From a virus: a stretch of DNA of 37,098 bases. The stretch's first letter is position 1. Every line of letters begins with the position of its first letter. Below, piece by piece: positions 1-37,098 of this stretch. The translations under genes were made by a program, and so were the position numbers. Below the pieces are notes generated by a model. That model searched no databases. It saw nothing but the letters and a program-made list of their open reading frames with translations, and was not told the DNA's origin. The stretch spans positions 1-37,098 of the IMG/VR virus record IMGVR_UViG_3300014962_000023. One strand, written 5' to 3'.

Positions 1-77
1 GGGTCGCTGCCCGCCGAGGCGTGCGAGGAGGCGTGGGCGGTCGGCGTGCGGGAGTCGGTGAACCGGGAGTCGTTGCC
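1..77. repeat. Terminal direct repeat, copy 1 (contig circularity)
   Basis: These 77 bases are identical to the last 77 bases of the window (37022-37098). A perfect overlap of this length is what a short-read assembler leaves at the ends of a circular contig, and the fibre gene reads in frame across the join. It is therefore probably not a biological terminal repeat. The unit genome would be 37,021 bp. Confidence 0.93.
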
Positions 78-24979: not shown

Positions 24980-25440
24980 GACCGGCACCCCCTCGGCAGT
25001 CGGTCGAACTTGGCCAGGCCGACCGTGTACGGCTGCCACACCCACGCGACGATCTGGTCCTCGGACCACTCCATGTAGTCCCGCCGGTCGACGCCGTCGC
25101 CGTTCGCGCTGATGCCCCACGGCCGCCACGAGTATTGCTGCCAGATGCGGTGCGCGGCCTTGGCGTTGGACAGCGCGTCGAGCGGCGAGGCGGGCCAGTA
25201 GCGGGTGCCGCCCCAGGCCGACTCCTGCAACTGGAAGAGGCCATACGAGCCGTTGCCCACGGCCTGCGGGTTGTGGTTCGACTCGCGCCAGGTGATCCCG
25301 TAGCCCGTGCGTACTGATTCGCCCTTGAATCCCGCGGCCTTGAGCACCTGGACGATGGGGTCACGGCACGGCTTCACGTCGGCGGCCGGGGCCAGCGCCA
25401 TGATGGCGGCGAGCCCGGCGGCGGCGAATGAAATACTCAT
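24976..25440 (-). CDS. Secreted lysozyme-like / lytic transglycosylase protein
   Basis: 154 aa from ATG 25440 (ATGA coupling). Residues 1-25 form a signal peptide or anchor (ISFAAAGLAAIMALAPAAD). The rest is a lysozyme-like fold: catalytic Glu in ITWRESNHNP, then GNGSYGLFQLQESAWGG, and IWQQYSWRPWG. It cleaves glycan strands in family members. Its place is odd: it sits between a PAPS-reductase-like gene and whiB in the early operon, far from the lysis cassette. It may modify the wall of the infected cell or block superinfection. Confidence 0.78.
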   Translation of the reverse strand: MSISFAAAGLAAIMALAPAADVKPCRDPIVQVLKAAGFKGESVRTGYGITWRESNHNPQAVGNGSYGLFQLQESAWGGTRYWPASPLDALSNAKAAHRIWQQYSWRPWGISANGDGVDRRDYMEWSEDQIVAWVWQPYTVGLAKFDRLPRGCRS

Positions 25441-26249
25441 GTCCAGCAATACCCTTCGTCGCATTGGTCCGTGTCGGGGCTGAAGCCGGGGAGCATGTCT
25501 TGGGCTTCAGCAATGGCCTCGCGTAGCGGTCGCGCAAATCGCGTGAGGTAGACGCGGTCTTTGCCCAACTTGGAGCGGCGAGCGTTGAGGGTGTCCTCCA
25601 ATTGGGCGGAACGTTCAAATAGTTCGGGCTCGTCGCGGCGCATCTCGGCCCACATCTGCGGTCGATGAAATGGGCAGAAGAAGCACGAGGACTTTGGAGG
25701 CACGGGCAGACCCGCGTCGGCGATGAGCTGCTGGCACGCCGAGCGGTCAAGTCCCAATTCCACTAGCGGGTAGACGGGCCGCTCGTAGGGCTCAACGCGC
25801 TTATTACTCACGCGAATGATCTCGTCGGTACTGATGCCAATGCACACGGTGGCAGGGTCTTCCTTGCTGGCTCCCTGAACCTTGAGCCACTTGCCTACGA
25901 CTTTGATCTTGAAATCTGCCGTGCACAAGCGATTGCCGGGTGCGCCGTTGTCCATGCGGACGGGGATCGGCAACGAACGGGAACCTTCCTTCATGAGACG
26001 GCCCCACAGGGTTTCGGTCGTGCCGTCGCGCTTGACGCGGTCCAACTCATGCACGAGCAGTCCACGCTCACCGGCCCACGGGATGGCGACGTCGCGAACG
26101 TAGTCAAGGGTGGCCGGGTGCTCCGAGTCGTCGCCCACGTTGGCGAACAGGGCGTCGGTGACCTCGTAGCCGAGGCGGCCCTGGCAGGCCAGCACAAGCA
26201 TGGCCGTGGACTGCACGCCACCGCCGTAGGAGATGACTGTGAGGCTCAT
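25437..26249 (-). CDS. PAPS reductase / DndC-like adenine nucleotide alpha-hydrolase
   Basis: 270 aa, ATGA-coupled at both ends. The PP-loop is TVISYGGGVQSTAM (residues 4-17). A CXXC pair occurs in SSCFFCPFHRP near residue 190, and a C-terminal Cys pair in QCDEGYC. The family is widespread in actinophages, with proposed roles in sulfur metabolism or DNA phosphorothioation (DndC). No dndB, D or E neighbours are present, so a role in DNA modification is not shown; a sulfur or nucleotide-activation role is also open. Confidence 0.85.
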   Translation of the reverse strand: MSLTVISYGGGVQSTAMLVLACQGRLGYEVTDALFANVGDDSEHPATLDYVRDVAIPWAGERGLLVHELDRVKRDGTTETLWGRLMKEGSRSLPIPVRMDNGAPGNRLCTADFKIKVVGKWLKVQGASKEDPATVCIGISTDEIIRVSNKRVEPYERPVYPLVELGLDRSACQQLIADAGLPVPPKSSCFFCPFHRPQMWAEMRRDEPELFERSAQLEDTLNARRSKLGKDRVYLTRFARPLREAIAEAQDMLPGFSPDTDQCDEGYCWT

Positions 26250-29254: not shown

Positions 29255-29608
29255 TGATGCCCCCTTGCTCCACCCCCTGGAGGCGGGGCGGTCACCGGAG
29301 GCACCGGATCAATGACCTGGGGCTCGACCGCCCCGCCTGCCGCGGACCGGGGGACGATGACGCGGCAGGGCAATTCCTAGACCTGATCCGGCGGCATTTC
29401 CGCGAGCCTGTTTTCGTGCAAGCCGTTGCGGGATGCGCCACGCGCGCGGCGGTCATTGACTAGTCAGGCGTCACCTGGGAGTGCATTTCTTCTGACGGAA
29501 ATCACAGCGAATCGTTATGAACTCGGGGTGTCGATAAACCGATTCCCATGCGACAGTAGGGATTGCGGGCTCAACCGGAGGCCGCGACGCAGTCAGAGAC
29601 GGCACCTG
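29255..29608. other. Divergent intergenic region between MTase operon and integrase
   Basis: No credible gene in either strand. It holds a 13-bp perfect inverted repeat, AGGCGGGGCGGTC (29281-29293) with GACCGCCCCGCCT (29326-29338), and a 10-bp palindrome TGACTAGTCA (29455-29464). Promoters for the leftward operon and the integrase should be here or just downstream; I cannot pick convincing -35/-10 pairs. Confidence 0.5.
29281..29338. repeat. 13-bp inverted repeat upstream of MTase operon
   Basis: AGGCGGGGCGGTC and GACCGCCCCGCCT are perfect complements separated by 32 nt (29294-29325). The left arm is 27 nt upstream of the first membrane gene. No T-run follows, so it is more likely an operator or RNA structure than a terminator. 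Confidence 0.7.
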
Positions 29609-29650
29609 TTCGTAATCGAGTGGTTCCTGGTTCGAGTCCAGGTGCAGGAG
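29609..29650 (+). other. attP: Candidate attP core: 3' half of a Thr(CGT)-like tRNA
   Basis: The segment reads as the 3' part of a tRNA: anticodon loop TTCGTAA with CGT at 29611-29613, five-base stem strand TCGAG, variable loop TGGTT, T-arm CCTGG (29626-29630), loop TTCGAGT (29631-29637), CCAGG (29638-29642), acceptor strand TGCAGGA and discriminator G (29650). The 5' side does not pair, so this is not a tRNA gene. Phage integrases of the tyrosine type commonly use such a segment to integrate and restore the host tRNA. It lies about 195 nt upstream of the integrase start. Confidence 0.82.
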
Positions 29651-29845
29651 CAAGAGGGGTAGAGATGTCCGTTTCGGGCATTTTGCGACCAGTGTGGGAT
29701 ACATCACACAAAATTTCGCGACACGGGTGCGTTACATGCCCCGTTTCAGCCCCCTTCGCCCCATCTCAACGTCCTTTGATTCGCGTGCCGAACGCGCACG
29801 AGAGGTCGACGATGTGGACACCAACTACGGCATCGGGGGATATGA

Positions 29846-30679
29846 ATGCCTGGATTTTCACGAGCACGGGGGACAAATTCTGGGGGGGGGGGGCTCGATG
29901 ACTATGTTTCCTGGCTGCAAGCCTGGGGCGCGTCATCGGGCACCATCCGCCTGCGGATTGCCCACCTGAGCCGCTTTAGCGCCCACGCCAGCCTGTTCAA
30001 TGCGACCGAGGACGACATCGTGTCCTGGCTCATGCAGCCAGGATGGAAACCGCAGACGCGGGCCAGTTACCGCTCGACGCTGAAGTCGTTCTACGGCTGG
30101 ATGGTCAAGACCGGCCGGCGCGAGGATGACCCGACGGCCAACACACGGCCGATCAGGACGCCCCATCAGGTCCAGCCAGTAGCGACCAAGCAGGCCCTTG
30201 ACGCCGCCCTGGCCGCCGCATCCGACCAGGACAGGCTGGCCCTGCTGCTGGCCGGGTACGCCGGGCTCAGGCGCGCGGAGATCGCCTCACTCCATTCGGC
30301 CGACATCCGGCAGGACCACATCGTGGTCATGAAGGGAAAGGGCGGCAAGCAGCGGAAGGTGCCGATCCACGACCGGCTCCGGCCGGAGCTCATGGCTGCC
30401 CAGGCCCGCGGGGGGTATGTCTTCCCCGGTGCCGTCTCCTGGGAGCCGGTGTCGGCCGACGCGATGGGCAGGCGCCTGGCCAGGGCGATGAACTCCAAGG
30501 AGACGGGGCTCACGGCCCACTCCCTGCGAAGATTCTTCGGGACCGAGGTCTACCGGAACTCGAAGGACATTCGCGCGGTCCAGGTGCTCCTGGGCCATTC
30601 GTCGCTGGCCACCACCCAGTCCTATGTCGGCTTCTCTGACGAGGACTTGACGGCGGCCGTGGCTACACTCAGCGCATAG
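29846..30679 (+). CDS. int: Tyrosine-type site-specific integrase
   Basis: 277 aa. SAM-like core-binding domain at residues 17-90 (LDDYVSWLQAWGASSGTIRL) and catalytic domain from about 115. Catalytic residues: R142 (AGLRRAEI), K165 (KGKGGKQRKVP), H225 and R228 (AHSLRRFF), H251 (LLGHSSLATT) and Y260. The start is delicate: codons 13-16 are a run of 12 G, and only ATG 29846, with GGGGGA 5 nt upstream, is in frame at that tract length. The core domain begins directly after the tract and no other in-frame start lies between, so translation must cross it. An in-phase alternative ATG (29842) needs 11 or 14 G. Confidence 0.9.
   Translation: MPGFSRARGTNSGGGGLDDYVSWLQAWGASSGTIRLRIAHLSRFSAHASLFNATEDDIVSWLMQPGWKPQTRASYRSTLKSFYGWMVKTGRREDDPTANTRPIRTPHQVQPVATKQALDAALAAASDQDRLALLLAGYAGLRRAEIASLHSADIRQDHIVVMKGKGGKQRKVPIHDRLRPELMAAQARGGYVFPGAVSWEPVSADAMGRRLARAMNSKETGLTAHSLRRFFGTEVYRNSKDIRAVQVLLGHSSLATTQSYVGFSDEDLTAAVATLSA
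29882..29893 (+). repeat. Homopolymer of 12 G in the integrase start region
   Basis: Twelve consecutive G form codons 13-16 of the integrase frame. It is the longest homopolymer in the window. Slipped-strand mispairing at such tracts switches frames in phase-variable genes of several bacteria; sequencing or assembly error is the alternative. Confidence 0.9.
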
Positions 30680-30688
30680 GGGGAAATC

Positions 30689-30943
30689 ATGAGCAATCAG
30701 CCACAACCGCCGAACCAATACCCGGTCGGCTCCATCGTCAACGGCCACGTCTGGACGGGGACCGACTGGGTGCCCGTCCAGGTCGTCCCGCCGCCGCCGC
30801 AGCCAGCGGCGCCGGTTCAGTTCAAGCAGCCACTATCGGCGAAGTTCCAGGAGCAGCCGGCCGCTGTGAAGGTAGGGGTCATCGCGGCCAGCCTCGTGGT
30901 GTTCCTCATCGTGATCCTGGTCTACGGGCTCCTGAGGGGCTGA
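30689..30943 (+). CDS. Small proline-rich membrane protein
   Basis: 84 aa; ATG 30689 follows GGGGGAAATC and lies 9 nt after the integrase stop, so the two are co-transcribed. The N-terminus is Pro/Gln-rich (SNQPQPPNQYPVGSIVNGHV) with the WTGTDWVPV motif of actinobacterial membrane proteins, then a C-terminal transmembrane helix (VGVIAASLVVFLIVILVYG). It is probably a lysogeny-expressed surface protein; superinfection exclusion is a guess. Confidence 0.75.
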   Translation: MSNQPQPPNQYPVGSIVNGHVWTGTDWVPVQVVPPPPQPAAPVQFKQPLSAKFQEQPAAVKVGVIAASLVVFLIVILVYGLLRG

Positions 30944-30954
30944 CCGTAACGACA

Positions 30955-30995
30955 AAAGCGCCCCCCGCTACCACTGGTAGTCGGGGGGCGCTGTC
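30955..30995. terminator. Bidirectional terminator between converging operons
   Basis: GCGCCCCCCG (30958-30967) pairs with CGGGGGGCGC (30982-30991), extended by CTACC/GGTAG around a 3-nt loop with one bulged T. An A4 run on the left serves as the U-tract for leftward transcription, and TGTCGTTGT on the right is weaker. It ends both the integrase transcript and the lysis/MPE operon. Confidence 0.88.
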
Positions 30996-36331: not shown

Positions 36332-37098
36332 CGGTACTGGCTCCAAGCACCGAGAACCGTATTGGACGAGGCGCCCTTAATGATCGTGAACGTGAACACG
36401 TCAATCCCGGCAGTCTGGTTCGCCTGCGAGGCGGTCGGCGGCTTGGAGTTGCCCAGCCACTTCACCGTGGCCGCAGAGCCGTCGATATTGATCGTCGTCG
36501 GGTAGTAGGCCGTCGTACCGTTGCTAATCATCCACACGATCGTGATGGAGTCGCCGGTCGCCAGCATCGAAGCCAGCGTCGTCGTGCTGTTGCCCCGCAT
36601 GTTGATCGTGTGATTAGCCGAGGCGTCGGTGGAGTAGTACCAGATGGTCGAAGTCTTGGCGTCGATATTGATCGTGCCCGTGGCCGCTGAGGCGACCACA
36701 TTGCACCGCTCCTCCGGCCCGAGGTTGACGAGGTTGGACAGCAGCGCCGTCCACGACGCGGCAGAGCCGTCCGTGGTCAGCACCTTCCCGCCGTTGCTCG
36801 TCTGCGTCGGCAGCCCCGAGGCGGCAGCCGCCCACTTGATCCCAGCCGCACTAGCAGCGTCAGCGGTCAGGACATAGCCATCCGTCCCGGCAGCCAGCGC
36901 CGAAGGCGTGCTAGCCGCCGAAGCCCCCAGCACCACGCCCTTGGCAGAAAAGAGGGCATTACTGACCTTCGCCGCCAGGTCCGTGGTCAGGTTCGTCACC
37001 TGGGACTGGGCGAGGGTGACGGGGTCGCTGCCCGCCGAGGCGTGCGAGGAGGCGTGGGCGGTCGGCGTGCGGGAGTCGGTGAACCGGGAGTCGTTGCC
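36328..37098 (-). CDS. Collagen-like tail fibre protein, C-terminal part
   Basis: 3' part of the gene that starts at 1154 (37022-37098 duplicates 1-77). After the stalk it continues [17 protein letters not shown], then [40 protein letters not shown] (twice in variant form), and a C-terminal beta domain with [20 protein letters not shown] and [11 protein letters not shown], ending VLGAWSQYR. The [10 protein letters not shown]-type repeats are common in phage fibres. The C-terminal domain is probably the exposed tip. Confidence 0.88.
37022..37098. repeat. Terminal direct repeat, copy 2 (contig circularity)
   Basis: Exact copy of 1-77. See copy 1. Positions 37022-37098 should be dropped to obtain the unit genome. 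Confidence 0.93.

What the first reader, a model, noticed from the sequence alone, without database searches (positions are those of the whole stretch)
29835..29905. Possible phase-variable integrase controlled by a 12-G tract and overlapping start codons
A run of 12 G (29882-29893) lies between the start codon and the first conserved residue of the integrase. No in-frame start exists between the tract and the core-binding domain, so translation must cross it. Two ATGs overlap as ATGAATG (29842 and 29846) in different frames: 29846 is in frame at 12 G and has the better-placed ribosome site (GGGGGA, 5 nt); 29842 becomes in frame at 11 or 14 G; a third upstream frame (ATG 29694) needs 13 G. Slippage would thus give strong, weak or altered integrase, making lysogenisation a population-level coin toss. 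Phase variation by poly-G is known for bacterial surface genes; I know of no established case for a phage integrase.
Basis: partly seen in the sequence, partly recalled or inferred. Interest (0 to 1): 0.75.

Follow-up and report, generated by a model that had tools for sequence, protein, structure and literature searches.

The report
Slippery repeat switch in phage integrase
An uncultured phage and a dozen of its relatives carry a slippage-prone DNA repeat (a run of G, a run of C, or AG repeated) inside the first codons of the gene that lets them insert into the host chromosome, so copying errors would be expected to switch or change that gene at random; such switches are known for bacterial surface and defence genes, but I found no report of one in a phage integrase.

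Summary
In detail: a 12-G run (29882-29893) lies in the 5' coding end of an intact tyrosine integrase (29846-30679), with no start codon between it and the core-binding domain. Alone it could be chance or an assembly slip; relatives decide. IMG/VR scans found 10 other contigs with the same attP/leader/integrase layout. Nine have an uninterrupted repeat at this exact place: G9, G9, G10, G11, G13, G13, G16, (AG)16, (AG)22; the tenth has G9 broken by one base. A sister clade has C11, C14, C15, and one member without it. In about 211 kb scanned, G/C runs of 9 or more and dinucleotide arrays of 7 or more occur only at this spot. Near-identical integrases differ in repeat number. A leader start with its ribosome site is conserved; it is in frame with the integrase in 8 of 11 and off in 3, where it stops within 14 nt of a second integrase ATG. 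Best explanation: a simple-sequence-repeat contingency locus setting integrase translation. Unproven: length variation within one population, and any effect on lysogeny. The window phage lacks the second start, so off-frame lengths there should lose the integrase unless another upstream start substitutes.

The parts
29618..29652 (+). attP core: 35 nt of a tRNA 3' end (GAGTGGTTCCTGGTTCGAGTCCAGGTGCAGGAGCA)
   Evidence: Same 35-mer (one variable base) lies about 215-235 nt upstream of the repeat in all nine IMG/VR contigs found with it; that it is the attachment site is inferred from position and tRNA likeness; ARAGORN finds no whole tRNA
29835..29840 (+). Ribosome-binding site GGGGGA of the leader start
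   Evidence: Aligns with GGGGGGA of relatives, 4-5 nt before their leader ATG
29842..29844 (+). Overlapping alternative ATG, in frame with the integrase at 11 or 14 G
   Evidence: Sequence and frame table; not conserved in relatives
29846..29881 (+). Leader codons from start ATG 29846 (MPGFSRARGTNS)
   Evidence: ATG aligns with the conserved leader ATG of relatives; predicted disordered
29882..29893 (+). G12 repeat, coding for Gly4 in the present frame
   Evidence: relatives have G9-G16, (AG)16, (AG)22 or C11-C15 at the same place
29846..30679 (+). Tyrosine integrase, 277 aa, catalytic residues R142 K165 H225 R228 H251 Y260 present
   Evidence: Pfam PF00589 E=1.3e-22, PHROG 1, alignments, model, PDB fold matches
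29800..29814 (+). Alternative start ATG 29812 with GAGAGG site (29800-29805), in frame at 11 or 14 G
   Evidence: Frame table; not shown to be used
30689..30943 (+). Small predicted membrane protein following the integrase; its NGHVWTGT(D/E)W motif recurs downstream of the integrase in L190
   Evidence: tblastn 51% over 41 aa to L190; no family match

Best explanation
The tract is a simple-sequence-repeat contingency locus in the first codons of a phage tyrosine integrase. Ribosomes start at a conserved leader ATG with a strong ribosome site and read through the repeat. When the repeat length is in frame (12 G in this phage), leader and integrase are made as one protein. Slippage of DNA polymerase on the repeat shifts the frame, and the leader ORF then ends early. 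In most relatives it ends close to a second integrase ATG just after the repeat, which would permit a different, probably lower, level of a short form by re-initiation. In the window phage that second start is missing, so off-frame lengths should abolish the integrase unless ATG 29842 or ATG 29812 (at 11/14 G) substitutes. Shown: the repeat, its recurrence with different units and lengths at one site, the conserved leader start, the frames, the intact integrase. Inferred: slippage within populations, the change of integrase level, and the effect on lysogeny.
For: Ten other contigs with the same layout have at this exact site G9, G9 broken by one A, G9, G10, G11, G13, G13, G16, (AG)16 or (AG)22; a sister clade of the same phage lineage has C11, C14, C15. 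Pattern scans that did not use the integrase (tRNA T-loop + spacing + G9 or C9) returned 7 contigs in the whole of IMG/VR, 6 of them these integrases. In about 211 kb every G/C run of 9 or more and every dinucleotide array of 7 or more lies at this site. L193 and L194 integrases are identical in protein after the repeat (97% DNA) but have 16 and 22 AG units. The leader start and ribosome site are conserved. Leader in frame in 8 of 11, off in 3 (P=0.009 against 1/3, uncorrected for relatedness, where one search's script mislabelled the window row). In off-frame members the leader stop lies at -2, -2, +14, +5 and +5 nt from the second ATG. Precedents: the pglX G tract of Streptomyces (PMC4365076); mycobacterial NucS does not repair 1-2 bp indels (PMC11551767).
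Against: No read data: no length mixture within one population was seen. The off-frame G13 and G16 calls rest on assemblies and could be one base wrong. Most relatives have a second in-frame ATG after the repeat, so the integrase may be made whatever the frame. L043 has lost leader and repeat and L234 has it interrupted, so it is not essential. The window's own leader has poor codon usage and little protein likeness to the conserved leader. The host is unknown.
Confidence: 0.68

Rival explanations
1. Neutral linker expansion. The leader and junction form a disordered linker that tolerates Gly, Pro or Glu-Arg repeats; the repeats grow by slippage without being selected for switching, and selection merely keeps them in frame. 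Off-frame members are assembly errors or are rescued by the second start.
For: Leader predicted disordered; in-frame alleles in the majority; all the G runs of 12 or less in the attP clade are in frame; L234 interrupted, L043 lost.
Against: Pure repeats are easy to break synonymously and are not favoured by codon usage (Gly: GGC 59%, GGG 18%; AGA 14 of 760 Arg codons), yet G, C and AG repeats recur at one site in the lineage and nowhere else in these genomes.
Confidence: 0.2
2. The repeat is a translation-initiation element: an overgrown purine-rich Shine-Dalgarno or spacer that tunes start at the second ATG, with no role for the reading frame.
For: G runs and AG arrays are Shine-Dalgarno-like and lie 3-12 nt before the second ATG in several relatives; L026/L027 have G9CG6 just before ATG.
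Against: C runs cannot pair with the anti-Shine-Dalgarno and lie 40 nt or more upstream; the window has no in-frame ATG after the tract; the leader start and in-frame reading are conserved.
Confidence: 0.07
3. The repeat is kept as a homopurine-homopyrimidine DNA element (for example triplex-forming) between attP and integrase that affects recombination or transcription; frame effects are incidental.
For: All units seen (G, C, AG) are purine/pyrimidine strands; no A or T run of 9 or more and no mixed repeat was seen there.
Against: It does not explain the conserved leader start or the excess of in-frame lengths.
Confidence: 0.03
4. Sequencing or assembly artefact.
For: Poly-G is a known short-read artefact; L187 shows what junk looks like (a 52-base run at a contig end).
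Against: Independent contigs from different metagenome accessions have repeats of three unit types at one site, flanked by aligned unique sequence. An error of one base in length stays possible.
Confidence: 0.02

Closest known systems
Poly-G phase variation of pglX in the Streptomyces coelicolor Pgl phage-defence system (Sumby and Smith 2003, as described in PMC4365076)
   Same: Coding G tract whose length change switches a gene on and off in a high-G+C actinobacterium
   Different: Host defence methyltransferase gene with 8 G; switching measured. Here a phage integrase, 9-16 G or C or AG arrays, leader start, second start after the repeat; switching not measured
Poly-G/C contingency loci of Campylobacter, Neisseria and other bacteria (general knowledge)
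   Same: Homopolymer or short repeat at the 5' coding end of a gene, reading-frame switching by slippage
   Different: Surface and modification genes of bacteria; no phage integrase known to me, and none found in the searches
Integrases of Gordonia and mycobacteriophages (Rahul, EricDab, Liefie, Brujita)
   Same: Same tyrosine-integrase family, about 37-41% identical for Rahul, EricDab and Liefie; Brujita integrase is the best PDB fold match
   Different: No repeat at the 5' end in the isolate phage loci fetched (L001-L024); in several the integrase lies directly behind an immunity repressor gene
Site-specific inversion systems of phages such as the haloarchaeal phage phiCh1 (title cited in PMC8371274)
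   Same: Phage-encoded reversible variation
   Different: There a recombinase varies adhesin genes; here the recombinase gene itself would be the variable gene, by slippage

Membership tests
Simple-sequence-repeat contingency locus (phase variation) | Repeat of short units inside or next to the start of a gene, longer than chance | tested here: met
Simple-sequence-repeat contingency locus (phase variation) | Change of unit number moves the gene in or out of frame with its start | tested here: met
   Frame tables for window and relatives
Simple-sequence-repeat contingency locus (phase variation) | Repeat number differs between close relatives | tested here: met
   AG16 / AG22 in L193/L194 (protein body identical, 97% DNA); G9 / G10 in L236/L238 (95% DNA)
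Simple-sequence-repeat contingency locus (phase variation) | Several lengths coexist in one population; reversible switching | not testable with these tools
   No raw reads and no isolate
Simple-sequence-repeat contingency locus (phase variation) | Expression differs between lengths | not testable with these tools
   Needs reporter fusions
Phage tyrosine integrase | Catalytic R-K-H-R-H-Y set and two-domain fold | tested here: met
Phage tyrosine integrase | Adjacent attachment site in a tRNA 3' end | tested here: inconclusive
   tRNA-like 35-mer upstream of the integrase in all relatives found with it, but attB was not found in 395 + 148 genomes and ARAGORN finds no tRNA
Integration-dependent immunity module (Brujita/BPs type) | attP inside a repressor gene directly upstream of the integrase | tested here: not met
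   No conventional repressor gene called or matched at 29290-29840

The most novel reading that the evidence does not exclude
A lineage of temperate phages uses simple-sequence-repeat slippage in the integrase gene to keep standing subpopulations with different capacity for lysogeny (fused, short-form or no integrase). The repeat unit has been replaced (G, C, AG) while the position of the switch was kept, which points to selection for hypermutability itself.
Probability: 0.55. Interest if true: 0.9.

Novelty: new variant of a known kind. Interest (0 to 1): 0.8.

Why it matters
Lysis-lysogeny decisions of phages are usually explained by regulatory circuits. A hypermutable repeat in the integrase would make the ability to integrate a heritable, randomly switching trait of the phage population: bet-hedging written in DNA that can be read directly from metagenome reads. 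It would extend contingency loci from bacterial surface and defence genes to a phage's core lysogeny enzyme, and give a natural system for measuring slippage during phage replication.

Tried and rejected
1) The 11-G frame as the true frame: ATG 29842 gives better codon usage and a Trp at the spacing seen in isolate integrases. Rejected as decisive because most relatives' leaders also score badly in the leader frame, the close relatives lack the Trp, and the Trp codon is merely T plus the G run. 2) Single-protein scans of IMG/VR and genomes found nothing; profile scans did. 3) No nucleotide match among phage records. 4) The host: attP sequence not found in 395 genomes of one actinobacterial class or, with a shorter pattern, in 148 of another. 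5) RNA polymerase slippage or programmed frameshifting: disfavoured because C runs and AG arrays occupy the same site. 6) Pure artefact: rejected because independent contigs carry different units. 7) L074 (G12) and L044 (C16) begin only 47 and 16 nt upstream of their repeats, so their leaders cannot be read; not counted. L026/L027 (G9CG6 before an ATG) differ in layout; not counted. 8) Actinobacterial genome relatives (L207-L233) have no such repeat at the integrase start. 9) Literature: no paper found on a phase-variable phage integrase; the library is open-access only.

Full report
OBSERVATION. The window is an IMG/VR virus record of 37,098 bp with a 77-bp direct terminal repeat and tailed-phage genes: tape measure, head-tail adaptor, major head protein, maturation protease, portal, terminase, DNA polymerase/primase, exonuclease, endolysin. 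The 12-G tract at 29882-29893 is exact; the next longest homopolymer in the window has 7 bases. Frames: ATG 29846 reads into the integrase at 9, 12 or 15 G; ATG 29842 and ATG 29812 at 11 or 14; GTG 29814, ATG 29736 and GTG 29694 at 10 or 13. The first in-frame GTG/ATG after the tract is at 30020/30032, already in the core-binding domain.

THE GENE. The 277-aa product is a tyrosine integrase (Pfam PF00589, E = 1.3e-22; PHROG 1) with the catalytic set R142, K165, H225, R228, H251, Y260 present and invariant among relatives. The predicted structure (mean pLDDT 84) leaves the leader (residues 1-13) disordered and starts helix 1 of the core-binding domain at residue 15, so the tract codes the junction just before the folded enzyme. 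The best solved match is the integrase of mycobacteriophage Brujita. The closest isolate protein is about 41% identical (Gordonia phage Rahul). A tRNA 3' end at 29618-29652 is the likely attP.

RELATIVES. A profile scan of IMG/VR brought 80 integrase loci. Among them G/C homopolymers of 8 or more occurred only at the 5' end of the integrase: L025 G13, L026/L027 G9, L044 C16, L046 C11, L050 C14, L051 C15, L074 G12. Two pattern scans that did not use the integrase at all, a tRNA T-loop followed at a set distance by G9 or by C9, returned 7 contigs in the whole collection: L025 (G13), L190 (G16), L191 (G13), L046, L050, L051, and one piece of poly-C junk. A scan with the attP 35-mer returned 9 contigs; every one has this integrase, with the repeat site about 215-235 nt downstream: L234 (a G9 broken by one A), L235 G9, L236 G9, L238 G10, L239 G11, L025 G13, L191 G13, L190 G16, and L237 = L193 with (AG)16 in place of the G run. 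L194, found by protein, has (AG)22. These phages share further genes with the window, and so do the C-run phages (exonuclease, polymerase/primase, RusA-like protein). In about 211 kb made up of these contigs, the window and isolate controls, every G/C run of 9 or more and every dinucleotide array of 7 or more units lies at this one place.

ANATOMY ACROSS RELATIVES. Before the repeat lies a conserved leader start: a GGGGGGA-like site, a few nt, ATG, then mostly MG(R/K)H(E/K)... The C-run clade has its own conserved leader. Reading frame through the repeat: in frame in the window, L193, L194, L234, L235, L236, L238, L239; off in L025, L190, L191 (its script mislabelled the window row, whose 277-aa ORF in the same output shows that it is in frame). 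In the C-run clade L050 is in, L051 and L046 are off. The in-frame excess is 8 of 11, P = 0.009 against 1/3, uncorrected for relatedness. In the off-frame members the leader ORF ends at -2, -2, +14, +5 and +5 nt relative to a second integrase ATG after the repeat, a layout that could permit re-initiation. The window lacks this second start.

LENGTH VARIATION. L193 and L194 have integrases that are identical in protein after the repeat (to the nearest percent) and 97% in DNA, but 16 and 22 AG units. L235, L236 and L238 (about 95% DNA identity) have G9, G9, G10; L234 and L239 (95%) have an interrupted run and G11. L043, 92% identical in protein to L050, has no leader or repeat. So the site changes fast in length and unit while the gene changes slowly. 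Variation within one population was not testable here.

MECHANISM. I favour a contingency locus: DNA slippage on the repeat moves the leader in or out of frame with the integrase. In frame gives leader-integrase; off frame gives a short leader plus, in most relatives, a short integrase by re-initiation; in the window phage off frame would give none, or another N-terminus from ATG 29842 or 29812. Slippage at the DNA level fits the mix of units on both strands. Background: Pgl phase variation in Streptomyces is attributed to a G tract in pglX, with switching at 10^-2 to 10^-4 (PMC4365076), and mycobacterial NucS does not repair 1-2 bp indels (PMC11551767), so indels could persist in an actinobacterial host; that the host is actinobacterial is inferred from homology and G+C content only. 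The effect on lysogeny is inference.

ALTERNATIVES. Neutral linker growth is the main rival: the junction is disordered and in-frame alleles dominate. Against it, pure G or AG repeats are easy to break synonymously (Gly is GGC 59%, GGG 18%; AGA 14 of 760 Arg codons), they recur with three units, and they occur nowhere else in these genomes. Ribosome-site tuning cannot explain C runs or the window. A triplex-forming DNA role is possible but does not explain the frames. An artefact is excluded for the repeat, not for plus or minus one base.

LIMITS. No reads, no host, no expression data. Off-frame calls in G13 and G16 rest on assemblies. Literature searches covered only an open-access library and found no phase-variable phage integrase.

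Noticed in passing
window 1-77 and 37022-37098: 77-bp direct terminal repeat, so the record is probably a circular (complete) genome from a short-read assembly with k of 77.
   Followed up: partly
window 29290-29840: No recognisable repressor or excisionase gene beside attP and integrase, unlike several Gordonia and mycobacteriophage relatives; the immunity gene of this lineage is unidentified.
   Followed up: partly
window 30689-30943; L190 7207-7326: Small membrane protein with the motif NGHVWTGT(D/E)W follows the integrase in the window and in L190; no family match.
   Followed up: partly
window 30959-30990: Strong G+C-rich inverted repeat (GCGCCCCCCG...CGGGGGGCGC) between the convergent genes after the integrase module; looks like a terminator.
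   Followed up: no
window 25440-26249: Phage-encoded phosphoadenosine phosphosulfate reductase-like gene (PHROG 424).
   Followed up: no
L044 1-32, L074 1-59, L194 1-73, L197 1-13: Contigs begin at, or a few tens of bases before, the integrase repeat or its expected position, as if assembly broke at a site of variable length.
   Followed up: no
L074 48-120: G12 lies directly before an integrase that seems to lack the first part of the core-binding domain; truncated gene or chimeric contig end.
   Followed up: no
L043 460-600: Close relative of the C-run phages without leader and repeat; the integrase starts right after a GAAGGGG ribosome site. A possible locked-on form.
   Followed up: partly
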